Shown: positions 9,901 through 56,700 of the stretch, piece by piece | Layout of the letters: each line of letters begins with the position of its first letter | Numbering within the stretch: position 1 is the first letter of the stretch | Assembly: GCF_000003815.2 (NCBI RefSeq) | Contig: NC_049989.1 | Coordinates: 13,903,476 to 13,967,475, forward strand | Reading direction: 5' to 3' | Source of the DNA: Branchiostoma floridae | Lineage: Eukaryota > Chordata > Leptocardii > Amphioxiformes > Branchiostomatidae | Length of the DNA stretch: 64,000 nt | Translations under genes and position numbers: made by a program | Notes under the pieces: generated by a model | Database searches by the model: none | What the model saw: the letters and a program-made list of their open reading frames with translations, nothing else | Told to the model about the DNA's origin: nothing

Positions 9901-12900
9901 TTCTGTTTGCCCTTTTGCGGGTGACCTGTCCCTTCTTTTTTCCACCGTGGGAGGGTACCATCACACCTGTTCTCCCATCTGTGCTGATGACAAGCCGCCT
10001 GGGCTTCTTCATCTCCTTACCAAACCGTCGCAGATGGGCCTCCCTCTCCTTCTCTGACAGCGTGCACCAGGTGTCTCGGTGAATTCTGAATCTAGTGAAG
10101 TCATCGGTCAGTTTGTATTCGCCAGTGTTAATGATTGCACGTTCAACTTCCTGATACTGTCCTCTGACTACTTCAGAGAGTTTCTGCACCAGGCCAAGGA
10201 GAGACTGCGGTTTCCATCCCACAGCGACTTTTAGGATGTGATTGGCGGATTCTGCATTGTTGTTTGTCCATTTTGTCTTTATTGGAAAGTCTGTACGCGA
10301 GGTGGTGTTGAAGTTTGACTGTAGTAGGGGCTTGACTTGTTCCCGGAAGTATGGACCAAAGTTCCCTGCATCTGCGAGGTCCTCTGCATGCTGAAGACGC
10401 CCCTCGAAGACTACCCTGCTGGTGGCTGCAGTTATGCCGTTCTTGCCAAAAATTGCATCGATAACTGGTTGTCTTGCGGCATCACTCATCCCAACTTTGC
10501 GTTGCAGATACTCCGAACAGTTTTTGCGGATGTGACGATGGCAGTACAGCTGGTGACATCCCGGCCATGCTCTTCCTATGGCCGTCCGAAGAGCCCTTTC
10601 GTTGTCGCTGCCCACCACTGGCATAGATGGCGGGCTATCTAACACACTACGGATGTGGTCGAAGAATACGCTATAGTCTACGGTCTTGGACCCCCCATGG
10701 ACAAACATTGGGCCAAAGAAAATGGGGTGCTCCCCAGTGTCTCTACGCACTACAGCCAAGTGTTTGAAATTTGTCACAGTCACATGGAATGGTCCAAGAT
10801 TGAATGTCTTGTCCACTCCAAGGACTGTGTTTTCCCCATGGATGCTCGTACAGCAGAATCTCTTCATATCCTGTATTTGCTCATCAAAATACACGATGAC
10901 AACTGTTTCCTGTAAGAGTGAACAGGGGAAAATCCAATAAACAACAGGTATATACTTCACAAAATATGGTCAGCATCTAGAGTACTTGTACAATATACTC
11001 CTGGGTGTGCCTTAAATGTTTTCGATTAGTCCTGTCACCATGTACTAATTTACTTCTTGCACTTATGCATGTACTGTACTTTTAAACCAGTATGACATGA
11101 ATGTGCAATTAAATTTATAATTAAAGAAATATGGTGTCCTACGTCAATGGTCCTCAGGACGTGCAAATATGGCTTACCTTGTTGTAACCCCTGATGACTT
11201 GCCGTGCAAATGGGTGGCCATCTGGTGCCTCCAGTTGCTGCACGTGGTCAGCAACATTCTGTCCGGAGCCAGATGCTGCACCACGCCTCTTCGTGGCCTC
11301 CCTGTACCTCTTGTTCTTAACTTGCTGGATGTTCGTTGGTTGCTCTTGCAATGGCAGTTGATCCTTCAGCGTACGGAATGCTATACTTGGTACAACATCC
11401 CGAGCTGCAGCACCTATGATAATCATACATAAGACGGGCTAATATTAGACAAACAGGGTTTACAGCATGTTTTCTTTCTGCTAGAATCATTAAATGCCTA
11501 CAAAACTAATCTCCATGTTATCTTTATAACAGTGTTCTTCAATAAAAACGCAAAAACAAAGATGACTGGTCTATATCGACCTGAAAGTTTGAATGTTTGC
11601 AAATCTATAAGCAATAAAATATTGGTATATCATTACAGTTGCATCATGTATTGATCTGAACATATTATTTTGTCCTAGCTACAATTGCATAAACGTAGAT
11701 CTAAATGTAAATGTGTGACATTCCTCCACAATCCCAAGTTTCTCTACATGAATCCCTGCAAAATCAAATATAACTCATCTGATAGCTGAACCTACCGATT
11801 TTTTCCATTGTTTCTCCACGGCATCGCACATATACAGAGTCAGGGTCACTTGACTTCCCATGTGGTTGGTCTCCTGGGTAAGTACCTGCAATACAACATT
11901 GTAATTAAGCCACAATCATTCATGGTGTAATAAATATTTGTAAATACATGTTTGTGCTGCATTAAAATTTAAATAGGTGGAGAAAATTGTATACATGTTT
12001 TTCATAGAACTATTAGTAGAGATTAAAAGTTTCTTCACATCTTCACAACTGTATCATGATGTGATTTTGGGTATGCTTACCTGTATACTCGTACAATGCC
12101 ACATGGGGGATGTCTGTGTCTCCGAACGAGTTGAGCCAGGACACTCTTCTCTTGTATGACTCTGATGCTTTCGATGTGCTATAGTTGCGCTGCAGTTCCA
12201 AAATGTCCTCCCCTTGTGGTTGAGGATTCAGTGGCACCGGCTTCCGACGGCCATCTTTGGTCTTTAAAGTACAGTAAAGTCCATCGCTGTTCTTTGTCAC
12301 TATTTGAGTTGAATAGCCGTTATAGAAGAGCAATGTTTTAGGTGATGTCCCCCTCGTCCATGAGCCACAGTCATCCCACAGCTCGCTTTTCTTTCCCGCC
12401 AGACGTCGGTCATGGTTGTCACAGTTGTCAACAAGGAAGGCGACGTCCTCCTTCAGTCCACGAGGTACATACTTTTCAACTTGCCCTGGAGAAAGCAGCA
12501 TAGTAATCAACCTCTCCAAGGACATGAGACTAGGGCTGGGTACCGGTACAGAAAATTTAGGTCCAGGTCCAGTTCAGGTCCAGAGGATCAGGTCCAGGTC
12601 CGGACCTGAACCTGGACCTGATTCATTATGACTCATACCAATGGTCAATTTCATTACAAAGAAATATGTTCGGTGGAGTACTAGACTTACACTGGCGTTT
12701 TGTAATCCTACAACGCTAACTGCACCTGTACGATTGGCTGTAAAACTTGGTAGAAATTACTGTAATTTCTACTCTACTTCACTCTTGTTATTTACTTCCA
12801 CCTGCAAGCGCCAAAACGTGTGAATGCCTGATAAAATAATCTTTTAATTTTCTAACCGGTCCAACATCCGGTTTACCTAATTTTTTCAGGTCCGGTTTTT

Positions 12901-15900
12901 CTGGACCGGTCCAATAAGAAAAACCGGTTTTGTACCGGTACGCTGTACCGATACCCAGCCCTACATGAGACCATTGGGCAGTGGGATGCCACCTTCTGCA
13001 GTTGGTCTGGGCAAAGTAGTAGGATCCACCTCTGTGATGCTGAGTTCGTCTGTAGGCTGGCACTCTTCTTCTGTGATGCTGAGTTCGTCTGAAGGCTGGC
13101 ATTCTGTGATGCTGAGTTCGTCTGTAGGCTGGCACTCTGTGATGCTGAGTTCGTCTGTAGGCTGGCACTCTGTGATGCTGAGTTCGTCTGTAGGCTGGCA
13201 CTCTGTGATGCTGAGTTCGTCTGTAGGCTGGCACTCTGTGATGCTGAGTTCGTCTGTAGGCTGGCACTCTGTGATGCTGAGTTCGTCTGTAGGCTGGCAC
13301 TCTGTGATGCTGAGTTCGTCTGTAGGCTGGCACTCTGTGATGCTGAGTTCGTCTGTAGGCTGGCACTCTGTGATGCTGAGTTCGTCTGTAGGCTGGCACT
13401 CTTCTTCTGTGATGCTGAGTTCGTCTGTAGGCTGGCACTCTTCCTCGGTGATGCTGAGTTCGATTGTAGGTACATGTTCCCGTGTGACGCTGCGCTGTGT
13501 TGTTGCTCTCCTTTTTTTCTTCTGTGCCAACTGCTCTGCTGCTGCTGCTGCACGGGCACTAGGTTTTTTGGCACGCTTGCTCCATCTTGGAGTGGGAGCT
13601 GTGGGTGCTGTGGCTGCTGTGGGAGCTGTGGCTGCTGTGGCTGCTGTGGGAGCTGTGGCTGCTGCTGCACGGGCACTAGGTTTTTTGGCACGCTTGCTCC
13701 ATCTTGGAGTGGGAGCTGTGGGAGCTGTGGCTGCTGTGGGAGCTGTGGCTGCTGTGGCTGCTGTGGGAGCTTTGGCTGCTGCGGCTGCTGCTGCACGGGC
13801 ACTGAGTTTTTTGGCACGCTTACTACATCTTGGAGTTGGAGCTGTGGGAGCTGTGGCTGCTGTGGGAGCTGTGGCTGCTGTGGGAGCTGTGGTGTCTATG
13901 AAGCAATGGGTAGGAGACTTCTGCTGCAGCAGGACAAAGTGGTTTGGGCTGAAAGCAGACAGAAAGAACCAGGTATGAAATTAATGAAAATCATGTCAAA
14001 GGAATACATACTGTACACAAAAAGTTCTGTCAAATGCAACGTAGCCAATTACATGAGGGGCAATACATTTCCAAGACAGGTTTTGAAAAGTTTTCTTTAT
14101 ATGATTAGATTTTTATATAAACACGACTTGAGTACACAATGTAAACTTATAACGTTATACATATTTGTAAATGATGATTGATGATTTGTTAATGCACTGA
14201 TTTTTTAAAACCATAGTACAAGTTGTAAGCTGTAGAATCACATTTTTTTCCACGTGATATCCACAGAAGTAACAATTAATAATGTTTGTTGAATTTTGTA
14301 TGGCCATTAGGTTTTGTTTCTGTGATACTAAAAACCCTCTTGTGTATGTATATGTACATAGAGAGAGAGTGAGAACTATAGATACATTTATTGAGCAGTT
14401 ATAGTTAAGGTTGTTAAAAGTTACCTAGTGCAACATGCCATGCAATTTTACTTCAACTTAATTCAAGCAACATTATACCCTTACTTGAATTGTCTTGAGC
14501 TGTTGGCCACACTTGTTGATGTCCACATCAATGTGAAGGCTACTCCTTTTGATGTTCTGACTCCTCGCCCTGACACTCTACGTGTGTATGGCAGTGACAT
14601 GTACTCCGATGGCACCATGGGGGGGCAGTAGCTTTCAAAGCAAAGTCCCAAAGCAGCACTAGCAGCAAAGATATGCTGCATACAGGACTCTTTTCCTTCA
14701 ATGGCTGCTTCCGGCAGAAGAATGTTGTACTCGGCCAGAAAAAGTCGACTGTCTTTGATGTGGTCCACGTGGTTGGGGTGATGAATATCATGGTGGGCTG
14801 GGTGTTCGGCTATCTCTAGCGCGGTCAGCAGTCGGATTAGGTGGTGATGGTGTTGCACACCATACATTCCCTGCGAGATTGCGCGATAAAGACAGTTTCC
14901 ATCCCCTTGCACCCCTATAGGCCTGTAGTCTTCCAGAAGTGCGGGATGGAAGTTGCGTAGAATCCCAACGGATGTCTCGTCCACCTCCCCAGCTCCGTGA
15001 TTCTCTGTCAGTTGGGGCAGGGTGACCTTGTATGTCTTCAGCAGAAGGCGCTCCTGTTTCACCACAGATCGGAGGTTGATGTTGGTTGTTGCAGCTGCCT
15101 CTGCCACCCTTTAATTGACACAATATGAGGTTTTAGAAGACTTCCAAAAATACAGAAAGCACTGTTAAATAATGACAATGACAATGAAGTTTATTGCATA
15201 TTACAATATTGGATCCTCTATGTTTTCAGGAGGCCCGGTGAATTCAGGAGGCCCGGTAACGCTTAACGGTAAATTCAGGAGGCCCGGTAACGCTTAACGG
15301 TAAATTCAGGAGGCCCGGTAACGCTTAACGGTAAATTCAGTGTTACATTTAGCATAACACTAAAGTAACATTGACGTGCATTCCTATCCATACAACGCTA
15401 GAGTAGTTATATCAATTGCTCAAAATATCCGACTATAGTATAAACCTAAGTAAAAACCCTCATGGTGACTTGGAATGGACTCTAACCGCTAAAATGAGAA
15501 AATATTACGATCTTTTTTAAAAATCAACACTCTGAAAATACAAATGGTATTCTGTATCCATCATTACCCCGAAATAAAATCATTTTCACGCGTTTACGGC
15601 ATCATTATAATGATCCAAATCTGCCACATACGCATAAATAACAGTGAATTTTGAACAAAAATAGTGCGGAAATATGGGCAGAAAAAAACTCTCAATATTT
15701 CGAGGGTCCTGGTTATCAAAGCGCCAATTTTCAAAATAAATGATAAACCTAATGGCCATTACCGTCCAAAATTATAAATCAAAGAACGTACCGGGTGGAT
15801 TTTGCAGCTTAAAAAGATAAATGTCCTGGTACGTTTATTTGGGACATAAGAGTATTTTTTTCTTGGGACTAATTTTTTATCAAAATCGGAAAAAAAATGG

Positions 15901-34287: not shown

Positions 34288-37200
34288 TTAGGGATGTGGA
34301 TGCCTACGGGCTTTCAGAACCATCTGCATACTTTGTAATTGTTGCATGTAGTCCATCGCTCTCTTTTCATCACCCATTTCTGTCCATAGTAATCGTAAGT
34401 TGTTCAGTGTACCAGCAATGCTAGGGTGTGCCGTTGTCTCTCCATATATAGCTTTACGCATCGTTAACGACTGTTCAAAGTAACTTCTTGCTTTCTTCAG
34501 ATCTCCGCATTTAACCCAAGATGTACCAAGGTTGTTGAGTGACGCAGCAATGTCCGGATGTGCCGTGTTGTCTCCATGGATAGTTTTCATCGTCGTTATT
34601 GACTGTTCGTAGTAGCTGATCGCTTTCTTGTGATCACCAAGTTTACTCCAACAACAACCCAAGTTCTGAAGTAACGCAGCAATGTCAATGTCTGGATGTG
34701 CTGTGTTGTCTCCATAGACAATTTTCATCATCGTAAGTGCCTGTTCGTAGTAGCTGATTGCTTTCTTATTCTGAACACCAAGTTTATGCCAAGCTGATCC
34801 CAGGTTGTTCAACGATGCGGCAGTGTCCGGATGTGCCGGGTTGTCTCCATAGATAGTCTTTTCCATCGATAGTGACTGTTCATAGTAGCTGATTGCCTTC
34901 TTATGATCACCAAGATTACCCCAAGACACTCCAAGGTTTCTTAGTGACCTAGCAATGTCCGGATGTGCCGTGTTGTGTCCATAGACAGTCTTTTCCATCG
35001 ATAGTGCAAGTTCTTTGTAGCTGATTGCTTTCCTATGATCGCAGAGTTCACCCCAAGACGATCCCAGGTTGTTTAGTGACGCAACAATGTCCGGATGTGC
35101 CGTGTTGTCTCCATGGATAGTTTTCATCATCGATAGTGACTGTTCACAGTAGCTGATTGCTTTTTTGTGATCCCGGAGTCTACTCCAATATGACCCCAGG
35201 TTGTGAAGTGACTTGGCAATATTCAGATGTGCCGTGTTGTCTCCATGGATAGTTCTCTGCATCGATAGTGACTGTTCTCCGTATTTGATTGCTTTCCTTT
35301 GATCGCCTAGTTTATTCCAAGCTGATCCCAGGTTGGTAAGTAACGCGGCAATTTCCGGATGTGCCGTGTTTTCTCCATAGACAGTTTGCATCATCGCTAG
35401 TGACTGCTTGTAGTACATAATTGCTTTCTTGTGGTCACCGAGTTTACTGCAAGACAATCCAAGGTTGACAAGTGACGAAGCAATTTCAGGATGTACTATG
35501 TCGACTCCATAGATAGTTTTCGTCATGGATATTGATTGTTCGTAGTAGGTGATTGCTTTCTTGTCATCACCGAGGTTACCCCAGGAACTTCCGAGGTTGC
35601 TCAGTGACTTAGCAATGTCAGGATGTGCCGTGTTGTTTCCATAGATAGTTTTCTGCATCGTTAGTGACTGTTCGTAATACCTGATTGCTCTCTTTTCATT
35701 GCCGAGATTACTCCAAGATATTCCCAGGTTGCCAAATGACCCGGCAATGTCCGGATGTGCCATGTTGTCTCCATACATAGTCTTCTGCATCGTTAGACCC
35801 TGTTCGAAGTACCTGATTGCTGTCTTCTGATCGCCGAGTATATGGTAACATATTCCTAGGTTGTCAAGTGACGCAGCAATGTCAGGATGTGCGGTGTTGT
35901 CTCCATAGATAGTTTTCGCCATCGTAAGAGACTGTTCGTAGCAGCTGATTGCTTTCTTCTGATCACCGAGTTGACTCCAAGATGATCCCAGGTTGTTTAG
36001 TGACGCGGCAATGTCCGGATGTGTTGTGTTGTCTCCATAGATGCTTTTGCGTATACTAAGTGACTCTTCCAAAAGTCTAATTCCTTTGGTAATATTGCCA
36101 AAGGAGACCCAGGAGGTTCCCAATATCCTCAGTATTTCCGAACGTTTGGTGTTATCGCTACCGGCATCTGTTAATGCTGCTTCCAAATGGCGTATAGACT
36201 GATCAAGCAGAAACAGGTTTTTTGCTATTCGACCCCTATATTCATGGGAAGTATCGAGGATTGTCCAATTTGGTTGGAGTTCCAAATTGTTCTCAATCAT
36301 GTCTACTATACATTTTTTCAAAGGGATCGCTCTGCAGTAGTATCGAAACAGAACATTTGTGTCTGGAATGTGGAATACCGACCTCAGCGTAGTGTCAGGT
36401 ACGCTTTGCATCTGTTGCTGAAATTTCATTTCGACAAGAGGGGACATGTTGTCTCTTTGTCCCCCGTTGGCCAAGTATGTTCTCAACCGGAGCTCTGCCG
36501 AGATGCTGGTCAGTACCGTAAGGTGGGTGGCATTCTCGTCATTGAACGTTTCTGTTTCTGTTAATTCATTTACAACATCCCACGTGCTAGCAAGGCTGAT
36601 TTGACAGCATAGAGCTAAGACTTCGATGGCTATGTCTGGAAAACGATAGATGTCTTTTTTGACATCTAACAATTGTCCGGTAGGCTCAAAGGTGGAAAAC
36701 TGCTCCATGTTGTCCCGCAAGATTAGAGCAGCAGACAGACGGGATTGCACACGTGAAAGTAGAGCATTTGTTTGGATTTCTTTTAGTTTTCCCATGTACT
36801 CGGTCACAAGGGTTCCATTCCCCACTAAGAAAACCACCCGCCTGAGGATGTCTGACAGGTGGTACCCTTCTGCTAGGGAAACTTCTAAACGCTGAAACTT
36901 TGCCATTTCGATAGGGGTTTGGATAAGACTAACGGGAGGTTTGGTTTTCGTCTGGTCTCTTCCAAATGGTGTCTTACATGCCCAAGGCATGAAGCCGTCA
37001 AAGGCAAATCCACGCGGTGTGACAGAGTCAAAGAACCAGTCTTTCTCTGGGTCCTTGGATTTAAAATCGTTGAGTGACGGGATGGCCATGGCTGGGAGGA
37101 TGGTCTCTCCGAGGTTGATGACTTTCAGGTGCAGGTAGTGTGTGAGGTTGATGAAGTAACTCCTTGTGTCGTCATTGTCTTTCCCGTCCTCAATCAGAAT

Positions 37201-39649
37201 GGCGAACTCCAGGTCAGAGTAGGGCGTGACCAGTTCTGTTGCCTGTGAGCCTAATCCGATGAAAGCATACTTACACGGAGGAGGACCGAGTATGGCTATG
37301 CATTCGTTAACAAGGTCTTGGATAAAAGTCCGTCTATCCTGGGCGATGTTCTTGCATAAAACCTTGACTGCTTCAGCTCGCTCAGCCTCGACTGTTATCA
37401 TGTCTGGGCTATCTTCCTCGTATTGGTACGGGTTGTGTTGTTGATCAATGGCGTCAATTTGTGACTTAGCGCGCATGCGCATCTCTTGTAGTCGCTTCTG
37501 ATGACGTCTGGACGAATCAGGGGAGCCTATCTTGGTGTCTATATTAGCAGTTTGCTGGAGAAACCATTGCTCTGTGTCTTGAAGCCGTTTTATCAACTCG
37601 GCAGTATTTGTGTCCAGTTCAGAGTCTGTTCTTGCCAATGCTGCGTTATACAATGATGCTGCCTGTGTGAAGTTCCTACCTTCTCTTGTTCTCTTGCCTC
37701 GCTGGACGTAGACGTCACCCAGTCTGCACAGGCATTCGGCCTCTTTACATAGATCGGGTTTGTTACAATCTGTATGTAAATAGAATATCTATTAGTCTAT
37801 TAAGTGATCAGCCAGACGGTTTTTCAATGATTACATATGTATATAAATCAATCCAGTATTAAAACATACTAAGTACGGAAATGTCGAATGTGGAATTTCT
37901 TTATTCTTTCAATATTTCTGGTAGCAGTTTGTAGAGATAGCTTTTGACATGATGAATAAAGGCATCCTAAAATCAAACTGCTTACATAGGAATTGTCTAA
38001 TTTTGAAAACCATTACGTTTTCATTGACATAATCAAATGAGATAAAACGATGTACCGTGAATCAGTCTCAGAGCGGACGCAAAGTCCTGTTCCGCCACGT
38101 CAAGCTTCCCATCAGCCAGTGCGCGGTCCCCTGTAGTCAGGTGCTCCTCGTAGGACCTAAAGTGAGGGTGTTACAGGTCTATATAACACCATTTGGCCAT
38201 GGGTTATACCACAGTACTGCGTCATGGATACTATTGATACATAACAATACACTTCAAGGGTCATCTTAATCACAATCAAAGTACAACGGTGGTTATCCAG
38301 GCCAAAGTCAATTGAATTGTATTCATGTTAAAAAGAGGAAAGTTTAGGAAATTGAAATTTGGAATATATCATGGAAATAAAAATGAGAATCTAACAAAGA
38401 AATCGGTGTCTTACGATGGAACTATACTATGACCGTAGAAATAGCAAATTATGCCAACATTTATTTGTCTTCAAGTATTGTAATGGTCAGTCAAGAAATT
38501 TTGCATCTATTTCTTTGTGTCTAGCAGCCATGTTGACCCACCACCGTCTCTCAGTAATAGGGCAATTACCACTCATGTGCTTACCTACTAGTAGACTGTT
38601 GACTGTTTGTGTCACCGATGACACCCGTGTCGGGTGACGTCATTGGAAATTCCCGTTGCACGTGACCCAGTTGCTGTGCTCTGTGTTTTTGATTCTTCAA
38701 TAGTAACATACAGAAGGACAAAATCAGTTATCTTAGCGTCAAAATTTGTCTTTGACAGTAAATAACAATCGACAAAAAAGGACGGGCTGCCTTAACCTTT
38801 CCGATCTTCTTCGTTTCTTGTCTGATTCTTGCCGTGCAAATAAGCGGCTGTGAACTTGACACCCATCCCCATACATTAAGCCCTTTCACACAGTGTGTTT
38901 ATATTAGCTACGGTGTTTACTGTAAGCATCAAAACACAACAAAGGAAAACGTACCTCCTGAATTCTGATTCTTGCCGTGTACTTTAAGCGATGAATTAGT
39001 GCCACTTTGCCTTGAAACTCCTCACACCGTGCCAGTGCAGTGTTGTACAGAGCAGTGGCCTTGGTCAAATTTGTGCTGTCTTTAGTTCTTCTTCCTCTTT
39101 TCAGGTACACGTCGCCGAGACTCTTCAAAGCTTCCATCTCTAACATAGTGTCACCGTTTATGATACCATCTGCCACTAATTTGGTATATTCAATCAGTAA
39201 CAAAGTCTCCTTGTTTCCAACAACAGTCAACTTGCGTTCCAGGTGCAGTAACTTCTCTGCTATGGCGAGCGAAGACAGTTTCTTATCGTCAGTAAGGGGT
39301 TCGTAACTACTTTGAGCTGTTGATCGCTTCCCTAACCTTAATTTCTCTGCATAGTGGTAACGATATACAAGACTTTCTCCCACTTCTGCGTCCTCGCACC
39401 GTATCAGTGCGGTCCTATACAGCATCATGGCTCTGTCAAACTTCTCTGGGTTCTTGTCGAGTCTTCCCTTTTCCAAGTTCACGTCTCCCAAGCTTTTGAG
39501 CACCTCCACTTCCACACACCTGTCCATGTTCGCCCATGTTTGTCCATGTCCATGGCGTCCAACAGGGCACAGAGGTACTCTGTCTCCGTACTCACCAGTC
39601 CTAGTCCCTTACTCTTGGCGTCCACAAGTTTTTTGCAGATTTGCAACAT
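34288..39649 (-). CDS. NTase-TPR protein (GlnD/DUF294-like nucleotidyltransferase plus about 14 TPRs), gene A
   Basis: Exons are about 39649-38955, 38156-38056 (101 nt) and 37769-34288 (a single 3482-nt exon). The first part has LGDVYLKRG...ALYNTALARC modules, a TPR-like repeat seen three times across the exons. The long exon holds an NTase core: GLGSQATE and, ten residues after the GS, SDLEFAIL, matching the hG[GS]...[DE]h[DE]h signature. The following GFAFDGFMPWACKTPFG and DVKKDIYRFPD segments resemble DUF294/GlnD-type helical regions. Then come about 14 TPRs of 42 residues (consensus GDHKKAISYYEQSLTMMKTI). Likely cytosolic; substrate unknown. TPRs suggest a protein partner, so a signalling or defence NTase is possible but unproven. 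Oddities: a 17-bp insertion near 39510-39530, relative to gene C, shifts the frame, so translation may start at the internal ATG at 39527. The phase at the first junction also conflicts (0 against 2), so a small exon may be missing. Confidence 0.8.
38635..38642. promoter_or_regulatory. CRE-like palindrome in intron of gene A
   Basis: TGACGTCA in the context GGGTGACGTCATTGG. It recurs at 42201-42208 (inverted) and 50279-50286, in the matching intron of each gene copy. The adjoining ATTGG is an inverted CCAAT box. It could mark an internal promoter for the NTase-TPR exons; this is inference from conservation among copies. Confidence 0.4.
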
Positions 39650-40061: not shown

Positions 40062-40590
40062 ATAGTGTCTTTTTACCTTCCCATCATGCAATGCGTGCAT
40101 ATCATTAATATCACTAGCCAAGGAATTGTGCCATGTAATATCATTGTGCCCAAACTTCACCAAACAGCAGTGTTTTTCTGAAAATACTATTGATTGATGA
40201 TATTATGCTACTTGTGCATCAGAAAAACACAAATGCACCAAAAAGCACCCATGGGAAAGTAAATAAAATGATATTTGTCATCAATTANNNNNNNNNNNNN
40301 NNNNNNNNNNNNNNNNNNNNNNNNNNNNNNNNNNNNNNNNNNNNNNNNNNNNNNNNNNNNNNNNNNNNNNNNNNNNNNNNNNNNNNNGCTTTTCCATGGG
40401 TGCTTTTGGTGCATTGTGTTTTGTGAAGCACAAGTAGCATAATATCATCAATCAATAGTATTTTCAGAAAAACACTGCTGTTTGGTGAAGTTTGGGCACA
40501 ATGATATTACATGGCACAATTCCCTGGCTAGTGATATTAATGATATGCACGCATTGCATGATGGGAAGGTAAAAAGACACCACTTGAATT
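40062..40590. repeat. Palindrome with a 100-N assembly gap at its centre
   Basis: The arms 40062-40287 and 40388-40590 are reverse complements. The CATGCAATGCGTGCATATCA word on the left is mirrored on the right, and CCCATGGGAAAG faces CTTTTCCATGGG across the Ns. The Ns run 40288-40387, exactly 100, which usually marks a gap of unknown size. It is either a TIR transposon whose centre failed to assemble or a true hairpin. Confidence 0.75.
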
Positions 40591-41213: not shown

Positions 41214-42553
41214 AGGGTTAATGACCCGCCCCGAGGTGTATATGGTGTCAAAACGCCTGGTCCTTTGCTATAACCACCGAATAAAACCACCGAGTGAGCG
41301 AAGCGAACGAGGTGGTTTTATGAGACGTGAACTGAGACGGTGACGTGAACTTGGAAAAGGGAAGACTCGACAAGAGCCCAGTGAAGTTTGACAGAGCCAT
41401 GGCGCTGTACAGGACCGCACTGCTCAGGTGTAAAGACGCAGATGTAGGAGGAACTCTTGTACATCGTTACCGCTATGCAAAAAAGTTAAGGTTAGGAAAG
41501 CGATCAACCGCTTATGGTGGTTATAAGCCCCTTACTGATGAGAAGAAAATGTATTTGTTCGCCAAAGTATCAGAGAAGTTCCTACAACTGGACCCAAGAT
41601 CGAAACGTTCTAGGCTCATTGAATATACCAAGTTAGTAATAGAAGGAATCGAAAACGGTGACACTATATTAGAGACGGAAGCGATCAAGAGTCTTGCCGA
41701 CGTGTACTTGAAAAGAGGAAAAGACACTAAAGACACAACATGTTTGACCAAAGCCACTGCTCTGTACAACACGGCACTGGCACGGTGTGAAGAGTTTCAA
41801 GGCAAAGTGGCACTCATTCACCGCTTAAAGTACACGGCAAGAATCAGAGAAAGTACCAGAATTCAGAAGGTGCGTTTTTCTTTTGTTGTGTGTTTGAGGC
41901 TAACAGTAAACACAGTAGCTATAGCTAATGTAAACACACTGCGAAAGGGCTTGTATGGGGACGGGTGTCAAGTTCTTCACAGCAGCTTATTCACATGGCA
42001 AAAATCAAACAAGAAATGAAGACGATTGGAAAGGTTAAGGAAGCCCGTACTTTTTTGTTATGTTGCTTACTGTCACTGAGAACAGCTTTTGACGCTAAGA
42101 TAACCAATATTGTCCTTTTGTATGTTGCTATTGAAGAATCAAAAGCACAGAGACAGAGCGCAACAAAGGGGTCACGTGCAACGGGATCCGAACTTTCCAA
42201 TGACGTCACCCGACAATGATGCCATATTAGGTGACACAAAGAGTCAACAATCTACTAGTAGGTAAGCACATGAGTGGTAATTGCCCTATTACTAAGAGAC
42301 GGTGGTGGGTCAACATGGCTGCTAGACACAAAGAAATAGATGCAAAATTTCTTGACTGACCATTACAATACTTAAATGAAGACAAATAAATGTTGGCATA
42401 ATTTGCTATTTCCACTGTCATAGTATAGTTCCATCGTAAGACACCGATTTCTTTGTTAGATTCTCATTTTCATTTCCATGATATATTCCAAATTTCAATC
42501 AACCAGGCGTTATGACACCATATATACCGAGGAACAGGCGGGTCATTAACCCT
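41214..42553 (+). mobile_element. TIR-bounded segment carrying a captured TPR-gene fragment
   Basis: AGGGTTAATGACCCGCC at 41214 is mirrored by GGCGGGTCATTAACCCT ending at 42553. Inside that, GTATATGGTGTCAAAACGCC faces GGCGTTATGACACCATAT, so the inverted ends are about 45-50 bp long. ATTA lies outside both ends (41210-41213 and 42554-42557). Between the ends, 41341-42498 is homologous, inverted, to about 38350-39487 of gene A (exon, intron and flanking words), and the homology stops at the inner edge of the repeats. This looks like gene-fragment capture by a DNA transposon. Confidence 0.65.
41341..41869 (+). pseudogene. Partial NTase-TPR gene first exon (captured fragment)
   Basis: Open frame beginning VNLEKGRLDKSPVKFDRAM and running through KLRLGKRSTA, LIEYTKLV and LGDVYLKRG-like repeats, ending at IQK before a GTGCGT donor. 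It lacks the first 30-40 residues of the family and all NTase and TPR-array exons. Divergence from gene A is considerable (roughly a quarter of residues by eye), so it is not an assembly duplicate. It is preceded by an ATAAAACCACC...GGTGGTTTTAT hairpin. It has no obvious promoter, so I treat it as a fragment. Confidence 0.7.
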
Positions 42554-44720: not shown

Positions 44721-47700
44721 TTAATGACTTTTTAAAGTAATTCCTTGCTTTTCTGAGATTTCCGAGTATAAACCAATGTTGTTTAGTGACACAGCAATGT
44801 CAGCATGTGCCGTGTTGGCTCCATAGATAGATTTCCTCATCACCAGTGACTGTTCAAAGTAGCTGATTGCTTCCTTCCAATCGCCGAGTTGATTCAAATA
44901 TAATCCCAGGTTGTGAAGTGACTTGACAATGTCCGGATGTGCCTTGTTGTCTCCATAAATAGTTTTTGTCATCGTTAGTGACAGTTTGAAGTAGCTGATT
45001 GCTATCTTCTATTATGAATCGCCGAGTTGATTAAAACATAATCCCAGGCTGTGAAGTGACTTGACAATGTCAGGATGTGCCGTGTTTCCATAAATGATTT
45101 TTCTCATCGCTAGTGACTGTTCGAAATAGCTGATTGCTTTCTTCTGACCGCCGAGTTGATGCAAACATAATCCGAGGTTGTGAAGTGACCCAGCAATAGC
45201 CGGATGTGCCGTGTTGTCTCCATAGATAATTTTCGCCATCGTTAGTGACTGTTCGAAGTAGCTGATTGCTTTCTTGTGGTCACCGAGTTTACTCCAAGAC
45301 AAGCCAAGTTTGTTTAGTGACTCACCAATGTCAGGATGTGCCGTGTTGTCTCCATAAATAATTTTCGCCATCGATAGTGACTGTTCGAAGTAGCTGATTG
45401 CTTTCTTGTGGTCACCGAGTTTACTCCAAGACAATCCAGGGCTGTTTAGTGACTCAGCAATGTCAGCATGTGCCGTGTTGTCTCCATAAATAATTTTTGT
45501 CATCGCTAGTGACTGTTCGAAGTAGTTGATTGCTTTCTTCCGATCGCCGAGTTGATTCAAACATAATCCCAGGTTGTGAAGCGACTCAGCAATGTGCAGA
45601 TGTGCCGAGTTGTCTCCATAGATAATTTTCGCCATCGTTAGTGACTGTTCGAAGTAGCTGATTGCTTTCTTGTGGTCACCGAGTTTACCCCAAGACAATC
45701 CAAGGTTGTGAAGTGACTCAGCAATGTCAGCATGTGCCGTGTTGTCTCCATAAATAATTTTTCTCATCGCTAGTGATCATGACTGTTCGAAGTAGTTGAT
45801 TGCTTTCTTCTGATCGCCGAGTTTACTCCAAGTCAATCCAAGGTTCTTTAGTGATGCAGCAATGTCAGGATGTGCCGTGTTGTCTCCATAGATAATTTTC
45901 GCCATCGTTAGTGACTGTTCGAAGTAGCTGATTGCTTTCTTGTGGTCACTGAGTTTACCCCAAGACAATCCAAGGTTGTTTAGTGACTCAGCAATGTCAG
46001 CATGTGCCGTGTTGTCTCCATAAATAATTTTTCTCATCGTTAGTGACTGTTCGAAGTAGTTGATTGCTTTCTTCTGATCGCCGAGTTTACTCCAAGTCAA
46101 TCCAAGGTTGTTTAGTGATGCAGTAATGTCAGGATGTGCCGTGTTGTCTCCATAGATGGTTTTCATCATCGTTAATGCCTGTTTGTAGTGGCTGATTGCT
46201 TTCCTCTGATCGCCAAGTTCACTCCAAGACAATCCAAGGTTGTTTAGAGATACAGCAATGTCCGGATGTGCCGCGTTGTTTCTATCGGTAGTTTTCCACA
46301 TCGTTAGAGACTGTTCGAAGTGGCCAATTGCCTTCTTGTGATCGCCAAGTTCACTCCAAGCTGATCCCAGTTTGCAAAGTGACGCAGCAATGTCCGGATA
46401 TCGATGTGCCGTGGTGTTCCCATGGATAGTTTTCAACATCGATACCAAATTTTCTAAGTAGTCGACTGCTTTCTTCTTTTCACCAAGTTGCCCCCATTCT
46501 AATCCCAGTTTGTAAAGTGACCAAGCAATGTCTGGATGTGCCTTGTTTTGTCCATAGATTGTTCTCTCCATCGATAGTGACTGTTCATAGTACCTGATTG
46601 CTTTCTTGTGATTGCCGAGTTTACTCCAAGACGATCCCAACTTGTCAAGTGACGAGGCCATGTCTGGATGCGCCGTGTTGTCTCCATGGATAGTTTTATT
46701 CATCGTTAATGACTGTTCGTAGTAGTTGATCGCTTTCGTGTGATCGTCACGTCTACCCCATGATAACCCCAGACAGTAGAGTGACCGGGCAATGCCCGGA
46801 TGTGCTATATTGTCTCCATAGACGGTTTTCCTCATCGTTAGTGCCTGGTCGTGGTACCTAATTGCTTTCTCGTGATCGTTAAGTTCACTCCAAGCTAATC
46901 CTATGTTATAGAGTGACATGGCGATGTCTGAATGTGCGGTATTGTCTCCATAGATTGTTGTTTGAATCGTTAATGACTTTTCGTAGTAACTGATTGCTTT
47001 TTTTGTGATCACCGAGTTTACTCCAAGATGAGCCAAGATTGTTAAATAATCCGGCAATGTGTAGATGTTGGGTGTTGTCTGCATAAATCGTTTCCATCAT
47101 TTTCATTGCCTCTTCATAGAAGCTTATTGCTTTCTTGTCATTTCCGAGTTCACTCCAAGATTATCCCAAGCTCTGTAATGACCCGGCAATGACCGGATGT
47201 GCCGCGTGATCTCCATAGATGGTTTTCATCATCTTCAGTGCCTGTTCCTGGTAGCTGATTGCTTTCTGTTGATCTCCAAGTACCATCCAATATGATCCCA
47301 TATTGGTTAATGAAGTGGCTATGTCCAGATGTGCTGTGTTGTCACCATAGAGAGTTTTCATCATTGTTAGTGCCTGTTCCTTGTAACTGATTGCTTTCTG
47401 TTGATCACCAAGTTCCATAAAGGAAGCACCCATACTGCTTAATGAAACGGCAATGGCTGGATGTGCCGTGTTGTCTCCATACATACTTTTAGTCATCGTT
47501 AATGCTTGTTCAAAGTAGCTGATTGCCTTCTCATGATCACCGAGTTCGCCCCAAGCTGATCCCAGGTTCTGAAGTAATTTAGCATCGTTTGTATGCGCCG
47601 TGTTTTTTCCACAGATAGTTTTTCTCATCGTTAGTGACTGTTCAAAGTAGCTGATTGCTTTTTCCTGATTGCCTAATCTACTATAACACAATCCCAAGTT

Positions 47701-50700
47701 GCTAAGTGAACCGGCAATGATCTGGTGTGCTGCACTGTCTCCAAAGAATCGTTTGCGCAAGGTTAGGGACTCTTCAAAACGACTAAGGGCTTTTGTAATA
47801 TTGCCATCAAAGACAAAAAGATTTCCCAATTCTTCAAGTATATCCGAGCGTTCAAGTACGTCCCTTTCTGTATCGTTTATTGCTGCTTCGAAATATTCTT
47901 TGGCTCTTCCTGAAAGGTACATGTTTCTAGCAATCTGACCCCTGCATTTGTTGGAGGCATCAAAGATGGTCATTTCTATTGCCCTTTTAGGTTGCAACCC
48001 CAACCTGTTATTTACTATGTCTAGTATATACTTCTTCAAAGGAATAGCCCTGCAGTGGTATCGAAAAAGGACTTCGGTGTTTGGAATGTGGAATACTGCC
48101 ATCAGCGTATGTTGAGATAACTGATGCGTTTGGGGACACATTTGCACAAGAGGGGACATACTGTCTTTTTGTCCGCCGTTGGCCAAATATGTTCTCAACC
48201 GAATCTCAGCAGAGATACTTGTCAGTACCGTGAGGTGGGTTGCATTCTCTTCGTGGACCTTTTTCGTTTCCTTAAGTTCAACTATCACATCCCATGCGCT
48301 AGCAAGGTTAATCTGATAACACAGAGATAGTAGCTCTAAGGCTACGTCTGGAAAACGATAGATGTCGTTCTTGACATTTATCAATTGCCCAGTAGGCTCG
48401 CGGGAGAAAAACTGCCCCCTGTTATCCAACAGTAAGACTAGCATAGCAGATTGACAGGATTGGATGGGCGAAAGTAGGTCATCCGTCATGATTTCACTTA
48501 GTTTTCTCATATACTCGTCTGTCAGACTTTCTTCCCCAGTTAGGAAAGTACACCGCCTGAGGATGTCGGACAGGTGGTACCCTTCTGCTAGGGTAACCTC
48601 TAGCCGCTGAAACTTTGCCATTTCGGCAGGGGTTTGAATTAGGCTAACGGGAAGCTTGGTCTTCGTCTGGTCTCTTCCAAATGGAGTCTTACTGGCCCAA
48701 GGCATGAAGCCGTCGAAGGCAAAGCCACGAGGTGTGGCAGAGTCGAAGAACCAGGCTTTCCCCGGGTCGTCGGATTGAAAATCGTTGAGTGACGGGATGG
48801 CCATGGCTGGGAGGATGGTCTCTCCCAGGTTGATGACTTTCAGGTGTAAGAAGTGTGTAAGGTTGAGGAAGTACCGCCTTGTGTCGTCATTGTCTTTCCC
48901 TTCCTCAATCAGAATGGCGAACTCCAGGTCAGAGTAGGGTGTGACCAGTTCTGTTGCCTGTGAGCCTAATCCGATGAAAGCGTACTTACATGGAGGGGGG
49001 CCGAGTGTGGCTATGCATTCGTTAACAAGGTCATGGATAAAATACTGTCTATCCTTGGCGATGTTCTTGAATAATGCCTTGACTGCTTCAGCTCGCTCAG
49101 CCTCGACTGTTATCATGACCGGATCATCCTCGTCGTATTGGTACGGATTGTGTTGCTGATCAATGGCGTCAAGTTGTGACTTAGCGCGCGTGCGCATCTC
49201 TTTAAGGCGCTTCTGGTGACGTTTGTACGAATCAGGGGAGCCCATGTTGGTGTCTACATTGGCAGTGTACTGGAGAAACCATTTCTCTGTGTCTTGAAGC
49301 CGTTTTATCAACTCGACATTAGATTTGTCCAGCCCTGTTCTGACCAATGCTGCGTTATACAAGGATGCTGCTTGTGTGAATTTTCTACCTTCTCTTGTTA
49401 TCTTGCCTCGCCGAGCGTAAACGTCACCCAGTCTGCACAGGCATTGGGCCTCCTTACACCGATTGGGTTGTTTAGGATCTATGTGCACATAGAACACGTG
49501 TTACATCGTTAAGAGTTTAGTCAGAAGGTTTTTCAATGATTACATATGCATATAAATCAACCCAGTATACTAAGTACGGAAATGTCGAATGTGGATTTTC
49601 TTCTTTCAATATTTCTGGTAGCAATTAGTCTGGTAGAGATAGCTTTTGGTGAATAATGGCATCTAAAATCAAAATGGTTAAATAGAAATTGTCTAATTTT
49701 GAAAACAATTACTTTTTGATTGACAGAATCAAACGATGTACCGTGAATCAGTCTCAGAGCAGACGCAAAGTTCTGTTCCGCCACGTCAAGCTTCCCATCA
49801 GCCAGTGCTTGGTCCCCTATTGCCAGGTGATCTTCGTAAGACCTGTAGGTGTGAGGGTATTAGGAACCTTTTATGTCTCCCAGTTTACGTCATTGAACGT
49901 AAAATATACGTTAGATATCTTAAGCTTCATACAATTCCGTCAGTGGTGGTTTGTTGGCTAAGTTATCGTAGTTGAACTTACAATTATATATAACTATTAG
50001 TAAGTAATCACACTACAAAGCATTGTAATGAAATTCTACGATGACCTACGGATTATTGAATCATCTTATCATTCATCTGTTCTATAAGCGTTTCAACGCT
50101 CCGTCCGTTAACCCAAAACTACACGCCATAAACAAATGGACATATATTCTTGTCAGCCATTCAGATTACGTTGACCCTTGTTAGCGCTATCGACAAAGCA
50201 AACATCACCACCATTATATTGTGCTTACCTAGCTACAGACTGTTGACTCTTTGAGGCACCAATGGCAACAGTGTTGGGTGACGTCATTGGGAAGTCCCGT
50301 GAAACGTGCCCCTGTTGTTGTCGTGCTCTGTGCTTTGAACACTATAATAGTAACGATCAGGAGGATTGAGTAATTTAGAATCTATCCTTATTAGAAAGCC
50401 ATATGACAAGAAACTAACAGTTTCCTATAACATGTGCTACGTCAAACAAAATTTTGTGTATCTTAGTGTGGTTAATTGGAATCATAAAAACAGTAAAATG
50501 CTACAGTGAAGCATATAACAATTTTGTCTGAAGCCTAGTCACATTAAAAGATGGAATCACATCCGAGAGATGTCACTTTGTTCTTTACATAATTCTTATT
50601 CTAGTATTACCCAAATGTTACACAATCAAGTAAATGTTATTTCCTAGAGCAACTGAGTCCCCAGCATTTACATATCTGTTTTCATATCATAGAAATGATC

Positions 50701-53761: not shown

Positions 53762-56700
53762 TCATTTTCTAGGTAATTCAAAAGCCTGATAGTAGCTTCG
53801 CATCACATTCTCTGCGACTTGTCTCTCTTTCATGGCCCGTGTAAGAAGGTCCAGTCGAGTCAAACGATCATTCAATCTCTCCGATGCCAGCATGTCATCC
53901 TCTGTAAACCATCATCATCGCGTCAGGGGGAGACAAATAAACATCACAAGTAGGAATTATACATGGTGACGACGACTTTATCTGCATCCAAATATGAATT
54001 TTATGAGCTAATATGGACACACTAGGATGAGCGCCTTAACCACCTTGGTGTTATCACAGTTTATTGCAATCCCTGCCCTAAGGTTGATTGCCAGTAACAA
54101 TAAAAAGCCAAACAGAAAATCAACAACATTATAACATTTCAATACTCTAGTCTAAATGCTGACTACTACTTCTGCGTGGAGGCTTGACTTACCCTGACTT
54201 GCAGTGTTAGCCAGACCAAGGAAGTTGGCAAGCCTCCTCCACAACTCCTGCAGAATCTCCCTATGTTCCTGAGGCGGCGTGAACCCTCTCATGACCACAA
54301 GTGCATCATTGATGATGGCCACCAGGATGTTGATGATGATGATGAAGACGATGCACAGATAGGCGTACAGGAACAAGGGCCCAATGATTCTACTGGTGCT
54401 TAGTCCTTTCTCAAATTGAAATTCCCCAGTGAACAGAGGAAGAGACTCTTTCCTGAGGTGACAATCGTGGAGTATTCCTGTAAAAGGTATTTCACTCATC
54501 AAGAGTCTTGCGACTGCTCTTCCTTCCCTCCATGATCAGACTAATGGTTGACTTACTTTGTGTCTTTTGACATCGACACTCTTTTATCTTTGTGCTTTAT
54601 GCACTATCTTATTTATTTGCTTTGTCTGCCTAATAAATACAATACAGGGGAAATGATATATATTAGTAAGTTACCGGGCACGCAGTACTGTCCTAATTTT
54701 GGTCCTAACGTTAGAACGTTAAAGGATGTAGACATATGCCAAGTGTCACTGATGATAAAAATACCGTTCCCAAGAAAACGGGAACAAAAAACGGTAATAA
54801 CCTGTCCACACCTGTATTTTCAGTCCGAACACCAAGTGTCCCAGCTGCACGAATGACATAAACAGGAAGGTGAAGTAGACGGCAAAGCCCGCGACCTCTG
54901 GTAACATGCGCCGTAATGACGTCATCAAGACGGACATGAGCGGGTTGAAGCGAAGGAGGCGAAGAAACTTTAAGATGTTGATGAAGGCGACGGTGGCCAC
55001 TGTCCAAACAAACGCCTGGTTCCAGAAGGAAGCAATATCGAAGCTGATGTACTTCGACTCTATAAGAAAGGGAGTAAGAAAAGATTAGAATTGCATCATG
55101 AAATGTACAATATATAATCAACTTTTTAAAAGTTGAACATAGTCTTCTCTACACAGCCACTGTCTAAACAAACACCTGGTTCCAGAAGGAAGCAAGGTCG
55201 GAGCTGATGAACTTCGACGACTCTAAAGAAAGGGGGCAAGAAAAGGTAATTGCATCATGAAATAATTTAATCAACGTTATTGAAAGCTGAACATCGTCAG
55301 TGAACAGACGTTTCAACCGGACGTCGTCTTCATCGGCGCATAATGAACAGTTTTTATCGGTGCTGAGTTTGTGTAAATTTGTCATTAGAGATGGGTTGTG
55401 AACAAAAGAATACTAATTTCAATTATTTTGCCAACTATTTACGAGGGCTTCTTAAAGCTGTCTCATGTCATATATTTTGATGTCCAATGTCATATGATTC
55501 GTCACTAAAGCAAATTAAATGTACAAACTAAAAGTTATTACCATGATGATGAAGCAGTAGCTTGTTGAGGGTACGCCTTGATGTAATGTAGTCTACAGCA
55601 AACACGGCAAAAGCGATGAAAGAAACCAGGATGTTGACAATCTCGAGAAAGTTCCACGGTTGTTGGTAGTACCTTTTCCCTTGTTCCTTCATCATTTTTG
55701 CTTCTCTGTACAGCGTGTACAGGAAACACGCCACGTAAAGGATGTGCAGAACCAGGATTATATACCCTGCTGGGCCCACGAACCGATGTAAGCGGTAGGT
55801 CCGGATAGAACGGGACGGCACCGCCCCTCCCATGTTGAGGAACTCCACCGTGTACGACATCGTGCTGAAGAAGTTGATGTTGGCGTTATAAACCGTGAAC
55901 TCCACGACGACAGCGCGTGTATAGCGGTCAATCCAGTCGGCTTCCTTCAGGTCAGCGATGACACCGAGGGCAGCATCTTTGTTTCTGCCTACTCCGGCAA
56001 CATAACCTCCCGAGCCGTACGTGGCAATGTCTGCCATCACGGGCAGCTCGCCACCAGAGTCGGGGATCTGGTAGGTCCAGGGGGATTGCTCATGGAAATC
56101 TTCGGACGAATTGGAGGAGGAGAGGAGTCTCCATCCGGGTAAAAAGTCTCGCGTTTCCCCGTCTGAGAAGGAGTTACCGCTGTTGCATTCCTGGTTCAAG
56201 AACAGGCTGGTGTAGCGCTGGTGAAAGCCACAGGATCCTTGAAGTGGGCGGAAGAAGATAGCAATTTTTATATTCATGTATTAATATACGTTCTATGCAA
56301 AAAAAATATGGTTTCAGAAAAAAAAATCAATGAAAAAAGATAAAAGGGCTTTGTACCTATTCAGCGTAATCATTTCTTTTTCAATATTTAACGTTGGTTT
56401 CTGAAATATCACTTTACAGAGCAGTCATCAGACCACGCTGACGTGATGAATGTACCTTTACACCGACAGAACGGAACACTAATGCATCCAGCATACCGCA
56501 ATTGATTTAATCACGTTCTGCTAAAGATGAATGCTTACTGGATTTAACTCGTATCTGCTTGAAGCGTGCAGCTCCGATCCTGTAAGAAGCGGCGTCACTG
56601 ATGAAACGCTTCCGTCTCCAACCGACTTTATCACCGTTGTAATGTTGTTCCTGGAAAAGACCCGGAACAAGGACATCGCGCGCCCACGACCAATAGTCAT

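What the first reader, a model, noticed from the sequence alone, without database searches (positions are those of the whole stretch)
34288..39649. NTase-TPR fusion protein: GlnD/DUF294-like nucleotidyltransferase joined to about 14 TPRs
The long exon shows the nucleotidyltransferase signature (GLGSQATE, then SDLEFAIL; residues 135-136 and 147/149 of the 34288-37653 frame) followed by helical segments resembling DUF294/GlnD proteins, then about 14 near-identical 42-residue TPRs. GlnD/DUF294 domains are mainly known to me from bacteria, where they modify proteins or sense nucleotides. I do not recall a described animal NTase with this TPR array. The family is multiplying locally (genes A and C plus a captured fragment), as innate-sensing families often do. 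A ligand- or partner-gated NTase is a reasonable but unproven idea.
Basis: partly seen in the sequence, partly recalled or inferred. Interest (0 to 1): 0.82.

Follow-up and report, generated by a model that had tools for sequence, protein, structure and literature searches.

The report
Lancelet AMPylase-like TPR gene family
A lancelet-like animal genome carries well over a hundred genes that join a protein-tagging enzyme fold, known from bacteria, to a long repeat array that looks built to grab varied partners, and their nearest relatives found here are genes of bacteria that live inside other cells.

The parts
38955..39527 (-). gene A exon 1 (N-terminal region; predicted start ATG 39527; the upstream ATG 39649 is out of frame)
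   Evidence: splice model with GT donor, aligned to gene C
38585..38694 (-). gene A exon 2 (predicted)
   Evidence: AG acceptor and GT donor, frame and sequence conserved in gene C
38056..38156 (-). gene A exon 3 (predicted)
   Evidence: AG acceptor and GT donor, conserved in gene C
34288..37769 (-). gene A exon 4: end of N-terminal region, NTase, helical domain, TPR array, stop
   Evidence: open frame 1166 aa stop to stop; Pfam
36877..37389 (-). NTase core (A2 positions 30-200)
   Evidence: DUF294 28.6 bits on the 453-aa segment; fold match DrrA/GlnE
37204..37251 (-). catalytic motif G135-S136...D147-L-E149 (G-X11-D-X-E)
   Evidence: G, S and TPYSDLEF invariant in 13 of 13 aligned rows; G, S, D, E kept in 42, 41, 41, 40 of 43 own copies
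36997..36999 (-). D219 (A2 D160), candidate third metal ligand
   Evidence: invariant in 13 of 13 rows; 39 of 43 own copies, 4 without an aligned residue; low model confidence there
36277..36876 (-). helical domain, DUF294_C-like (DUF294_C is grouped with HEPN-type C-terminal domains in PMC3710099, passages)
   Evidence: DUF294_C 17.4 bits, below cut-off 22.5; second stretch aligned with DrrA, weak on its own
34297..36153 (-). 14 TPRs, period 44 aa
50710..51411 (-). gene C exon 1 (predicted)
50229..50341 (-). gene C exon 2 (predicted)
49742..49842 (-). gene C exon 3 (predicted)
47161..49478 (-). gene C exon 4 up to the in-frame stop: NTase plus first TPRs
   Evidence: 70% identical to gene A over 1045 aligned positions; DUF294 29.2 bits
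44778..47160 (-). rest of the gene C TPR array, broken by stops and frame changes
41339..42499 (+). gene B: inverted 83% copy of the gene A exon 1-2 region, no NTase
   Evidence: no Pfam hit for its frame 41336-42019 at E<=0.01

Best explanation
Gene A encodes a protein nucleotidyltransferase, most likely an AMPylase, of the GlnE/DrrA branch of the pol-beta superfamily. The TPR array on its C-terminal side binds a target through its concave groove and presents it to the active site, where D147 and E149 (probably with D219) hold the metal-ATP and activate a target Ser, Thr or Tyr hydroxyl. The family has expanded to at least 163 places in this genome and diversified its grooves while keeping the catalytic core, as expected of a repertoire facing varied, changing partners such as intracellular microbes or their proteins. 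Shown: domain architecture, homology, motif, purifying selection on the core, faster change at groove positions as a group, kinship with NTase-TPR proteins of Neochlamydia, Amoebophilaceae and Rickettsiales. Inferred: catalytic activity, AMP as the donor group, protein as acceptor, cytosolic location, immune role, intracellular life of all the bacteria concerned.
Against: No activity or expression data. The two DrrA stretches are weak taken singly (independent E 0.0022 and 0.15); gene A alone finds nothing in the PDB by sequence; SidM_N in gene A is 16.5 bits, under its cut-off of 27. Foldseek TM-scores to DrrA and GlnE are only 0.41-0.53, with large rmsd, and the stretch holding D219 has pLDDT under 50; distances could not be measured. 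The second acidic residue is E where DrrA has D. Two copies are degenerate: L057 (S to L, D and E exchanged) and L020 (E to N). The fold is shared by NTases with other acceptors. Groove selection: at the tightest cut-off (0.06) only 2 repeat pairs were left and there was no difference (p = 1); positions 17 and 31 are as variable as the groove set, so the groove is not the only fast part; pairs are between paralogues and gene conversion was not modelled.
Confidence: 0.6

Rival explanations
1. The NTase modifies RNA or a small molecule (as MNT, aminoglycoside or tRNA-modifying NTases do) and the TPRs only place the enzyme.
Confidence: 0.15
2. A nucleotide second-messenger synthase like OAS/cGAS/CD-NTase, switched on by ligand binding to the TPRs.
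For: Same superfamily (recalled); copy number and groove diversification would suit a sensor family.
Against: No such family among the Pfam hits of the gene A NTase segment (4 families at E<=1); none among the 50 fold rows shown, which alone is inconclusive.
Confidence: 0.1
3. Catalytically idle scaffold: the NTase fold is kept only for structure.
For: Two copies lost motif residues (L057, L020).
Against: Motif residues kept in 40-42 of 43 copies and NTase core median dN/dS 0.116; motif shared with bacteria.
Confidence: 0.1
4. Assembly contamination, decaying copies or passengers of a mobile element, without function.
For: Gene C array is broken; gene B is a fragment; some places on minor contigs could be second haplotypes.
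Against: Intron-bearing models and 163 places on 26 contigs; stops inside the match in only 2 of 119, 4 of 95 and 2 of 102 rows; purifying selection; amphioxus rows form one clade, 95/97.
Confidence: 0.05

Closest known systems
Neochlamydia NEX2 proteins (PMC4209131, section 8 read; here copies on plasmid pS13)
   Same: DUF294 in mid-protein followed by a C-terminal TPR array; 35.1% identity over 82% of the query, E 2e-53; shared blocks TPYSDLEF and LHLKVINLGETILPA; also an expansion (50 proteins reported; 11 copies on this plasmid, one of them split); groove positions variable too
   Different: most NEX2 members have an N-terminal F-box, ten have OTU; none seen in gene A by Pfam; repeats of 42 aa against 44
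DrrA/SidM N-terminal AMPylase domain (Legionella)
   Different: D-X-D instead of D-X-E; DrrA has GEF and PI4P-binding domains and no TPR array is named (PMC12409994, passage)
GlnE, glutamine synthetase adenylyltransferase
   Different: two NTase units and no TPR array (passages, and recall); acts in nitrogen control
FICD/HYPE
   Same: an animal AMPylase with TPRs for substrate recognition (PMC8097203, passage)
   Different: Fic fold, one or two TPRs, a single gene in most metazoans, ER; no Fic family in the hits shown for gene A
Generic DUF294 proteins and GlnD
   Same: PF03445-type NTase core
   Different: match limited to the core: in Bacteroidia genomes other than the seed 20-41 bits, mostly over model positions about 66-146; that these are generic DUF294 or GlnD proteins is inferred

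Membership tests
PF03445 DUF294 | score above the curated cut-off of 21 bits | tested here: met
   gene A 27.1 bits, 28.6 on the segment. All 13 rows of A2 match at E<=1, but L005 as a full protein scores 20.7, just under the cut-off
PF10335 DUF294_C | score above 22.5 bits | tested here: inconclusive
   17.4 bits in gene A, matched at E<=1 in 3 of 13 rows; 22.1 in Neochlamydia P0002
GlnE/DrrA-type AMPylase | motif G-X11-[DE]-X-[DE] | tested here: met
   G135-X11-D147-X-E149; motif as published
GlnE/DrrA-type AMPylase | pol-beta NTase fold with following helical domain | tested here: met
   predicted model only
GlnE/DrrA-type AMPylase | AMP transfer to a protein hydroxyl | not testable with these tools
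   needs an enzyme assay
GlnD (PII uridylyltransferase) | HD and ACT domains (recalled) after the NTase | tested here: not met
   neither is among the Pfam families shown for gene A (25 of 35 shown, the rest weaker) nor among the 4 for the NTase segment
Neochlamydia NEX2 | DUF294 in mid-protein and C-terminal TPRs | tested here: met
Neochlamydia NEX2 | N-terminal F-box (majority of members) | tested here: not met
   no F-box among families shown for exon 4 or for frame 38904-39527; exons 2 and 3 were not scanned; F-box-like present in P0001
Fic AMPylase | Fic domain | tested here: not met
   absent from the families shown (25 of 35) and from the segment scan
TPR proteins | TPR models above cut-off | tested here: met
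   TPR_10 268 bits, TPR_12 260.6 bits
OAS/cGAS/CD-NTase | family profile or fold match | tested here: inconclusive
   no Pfam hit in the segment scan; not in the 50 fold rows shown

The most novel reading that the evidence does not exclude
Amphioxus possesses a third class of animal AMPylases: a germline repertoire of 160 or more TPR-guided enzymes that recognise varied microbial or host proteins through diversified grooves and tag them with AMP as a defence. The same enzyme family is deployed, as F-box/OTU-linked proteins, by bacteria that live inside cells, after gene exchange across domains.
Probability: 0.3. Interest if true: 0.95.

Novelty: new variant of a known kind. Interest (0 to 1): 0.85.

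Why it matters
A 2021 review states that only two classes of metazoan AMPylase, Fic and SelO, had been identified so far (PMC8097203, passages). A GlnE/DrrA-type enzyme present in well over a hundred copies in an animal genome would add a third class and suggest protein nucleotidylation as a diversified recognition system. It also ties an animal expansion to one described in Neochlamydia (amoeba symbionts, recalled), which makes a testable case of weapons shared between hosts and intracellular bacteria. Enzyme activity, targets and expression after challenge can be tested directly.

Tried and rejected
GlnD reading: rejected, see membership test; against this rejection, L021 (16-19 bits) and P0002 (16 bits) weakly match GlnD models, far under their cut-offs. 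Viral origin: no relatives found in viral contigs or phages. PDB phmmer with the gene A segment alone gave nothing up to E 10; the profile was needed. Anti-phage defence library: one generic TPR model for gene A. A UIM-like string in L023 was noticed by eye; Pfam did not call it at E<=0.01, so it is not used. A first groove test reused repeats in several pairs (39 pairs, p 2e-6); I replaced it by the version with each repeat used once. Direction of transfer: the tree, rooted on one very long row (L012), puts amphioxus beside a Bacteroidota+Alphaproteobacteria clade, apart from Neochlamydia; that join (93/94) is not starred and rows L009, L012 and L020 are long, so direction is not claimed. In the smaller tree the corresponding joins had 82/78 and 83/80. 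Whether other animals have the family could not be searched: no eukaryotic collection was on hand. Fold rows for OAS, cGAS or CD-NTase were absent among the 50 shown, which is no exclusion. Literature: the searches listed no paper on an animal DUF294-TPR family that I could recognise from the listings; Kuchta 2009 was not held.
Full report
What is there. On the minus strand, gene A is predicted to have four exons (39527-38955, 38694-38585, 38156-38056, 37769-34288) with GT-AG introns, and 1421 codons before the stop (no transcript was available). The last exon carries an NTase, a helical domain and 14 TPRs with a period of 44 residues. Gene C, at 51411-44778, has the same four-exon plan and is 70% identical over 1045 aligned positions, but its TPR array meets a stop at 47163 and later frame breaks. 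Gene B is an inverted 83% copy of the exon 1-2 region. The ATG at 39649 lies upstream of 17 bases that gene C lacks, so it is out of frame with the rest; I start the protein at 39527.

The organism. The window lies at G000:C11:13903476-13967475 of a 513,431,437-base assembly of 431 contigs. No tool names it.

How big the family is. Searches of the whole genome gave 119 DUF294 matches (150 of 262 candidates scored), 95 rows with the gene A protein (93 of 318 candidates scored) and 102 rows with the protein of another subfamily (94 of 312). The union is 163 distinct places on 26 contigs: 17 of C1-C19 (none on C6 or C10) and nine others; 91 have a neighbour within 50 kb. The scored lists were capped, so more exist; on the other hand a place is a match, not a checked gene, 53 of the first 146 were seen by the DUF294 model alone, and some on minor contigs may be second haplotypes. 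Stops fall inside the match in 2 of 119, 4 of 95 and 2 of 102 rows. In the 30 best copies (including genes A and C) the motif GLGSQATEL[VA]TPYSDLE is kept in 30 of 30; of the 8 other loci, 7 carry GLGS[LMF]AR[EK]E[MT]TP[YF]SD[FLI]E, close to the Neochlamydia form, and L020 is altered. Of 43 own copies read (the 44 fetched loci less gene A itself), G is kept in 42, S in 41, D in 41, E in 40 and the third D in 39; the misses are L055 (assembly gap), L057, L020 and, for the third D, the short frames L018, L019 and L022.

Selection. Among the 30 best copies the NTase core has median dN/dS 0.116 (429 of 435 pairs; pairs with dS at or below 0.05, or at or above 2, were dropped), the helical domain 0.245 (344 of 435). 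Genes A and C: 0.31 in the NTase, 0.40 in the TPRs, 0.50 just before the NTase. Within gene A's 11 in-register repeats, canonical TPR positions 2, 5, 9, 12 and 13, which I recall as the ligand-facing ones, have mean entropy 2.28 against 1.01 overall (permutation p 1.2e-4; three of the 14 repeats were left out as divergent or shifted). Over 250 repeats from the 30 copies the same set is variable (3.03 against 1.55, p 4e-5), but positions 17 and 31 are as variable. Between paralogues, with each repeat used once, dN/dS at the set is 0.214/0.113, 0.215/0.157 and 0.299/0.242 at three divergence cut-offs, against 0.060/0.100, 0.074/0.121 and 0.088/0.168 elsewhere (16, 22 and 39 pairs; Fisher p 0.022, 0.02, 4.4e-6; at cut-off 0.06 only 2 pairs were left, p = 1). 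The 164 Neochlamydia repeats show the same excess of variation (p 0.002).

Relatives. tblastn of gene A's 512-aa segment against plasmids gives Neochlamydia sp. S13 at E 2e-53, 35.1% identity, with 11 places in that record; the six other records are at E 0.05-0.5, five of them annotated as DUF294 proteins and one without a feature. The record's annotation names TPR proteins, and of the two whole copies scanned Pfam finds DUF294 and TPR arrays in both and an F-box in one. These fit the published NEX2 family: F-box, DUF294, TPR, and OTU in ten of 50 (PMC4209131, section 8). The prokaryote scan found 12 relatives among 85 pattern matches, 11 loci, by record title: Amoebophilaceae and Cytophagales, Rickettsia-type and other alphaproteobacteria, one Chlamydiae and one gammaproteobacterium. 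The scan used two patterns only, so absence elsewhere is weak. Class-wide, 16 of 116 Chlamydiia genomes match, five of them with 11-13 scored matches (one of the five, G084, repeats pS13 coordinates and is probably the S13 genome). In Alphaproteobacteria 8 of 289 and in Bacteroidia 16 of 295 sampled genomes match, but full-length matches occur only in the seed genome of each sample. In a tree of 41 rows (16 of the fetched own loci, chosen for spread, plus genes A and C) amphioxus is one clade (18 rows, 95/97), Neochlamydia another (10 rows, 96/94), and Bacteroidota plus Alphaproteobacteria a third (100/100). Several of these bacteria are intracellular by what I recall of their groups; the nine seed genomes are small (0.8-2.0 Mb), but most are MAGs and may be incomplete. 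Direction of transfer is open.

Mechanism. I propose a TPR-guided protein AMPylase, with confidence 0.6. Fold, motif and conservation support catalysis; protein as acceptor rests on the two closest solved relatives; AMP as the group is the default of both. The repertoire idea rests on copy number and groove diversification; no expression or challenge data exist here. FICD is an animal precedent for TPRs serving an AMPylase, on another fold (PMC8097203, passages).

Novelty. The 2021 review knows two metazoan AMPylase classes, Fic and SelO (abstract and passages); a 2025 review names FICD and SelO as the eukaryotic AMPylases in the passages I saw (PMC12409994). My nine library searches listed no paper on an animal DUF294-TPR family. 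Since enzyme fold and architecture are known from bacteria, I file it as a new variant of a known kind. The mending of this report changed facts of detail but none that moves the odds.

Noticed in passing
41339-42499 (+): Inverted 83% copy (1187 bp) of the gene A exon 1-2 region, without NTase.
   Followed up: partly
40288-40387: Run of 100 N, an assembly gap, between gene A and gene B.
   Followed up: no
9887-10969 (-): MULE transposase domain (PF10551, 34.4 bits).
   Followed up: partly
14481-15110 (-): OTU-like cysteine protease segment (25.1 bits, cut-off 23.3).
   Followed up: no
55528-56280 (-): Polycystin domain (99 bits).
   Followed up: no
13030-13892: Minisatellites of 33 bp and about 117 bp.
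   Followed up: no
L057 and L020: Own-genome copies with altered catalytic motifs (S to L with D and E exchanged; E to N), candidates for idle NTases.
   Followed up: partly
L023 (N-terminal part of the frame): N-terminus that looks acidic and disordered, with a string that resembles a ubiquitin-interacting motif (recalled, by eye); Pfam does not call it at E<=0.01.
   Followed up: partly
L004, L006: Relatives sit in open frames of about 2700-2800 aa in a MAG titled Rickettsia typhi; the title looks doubtful to me.
   Followed up: no
literature: PMC12314368 (passages) and PMC4209131 (section 8): A second parallel: TPR-CHAT families are expanded in Acropora corals and, as PEX2, in Protochlamydia, mirroring NTase-TPR in amphioxus and Neochlamydia.
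   Followed up: no
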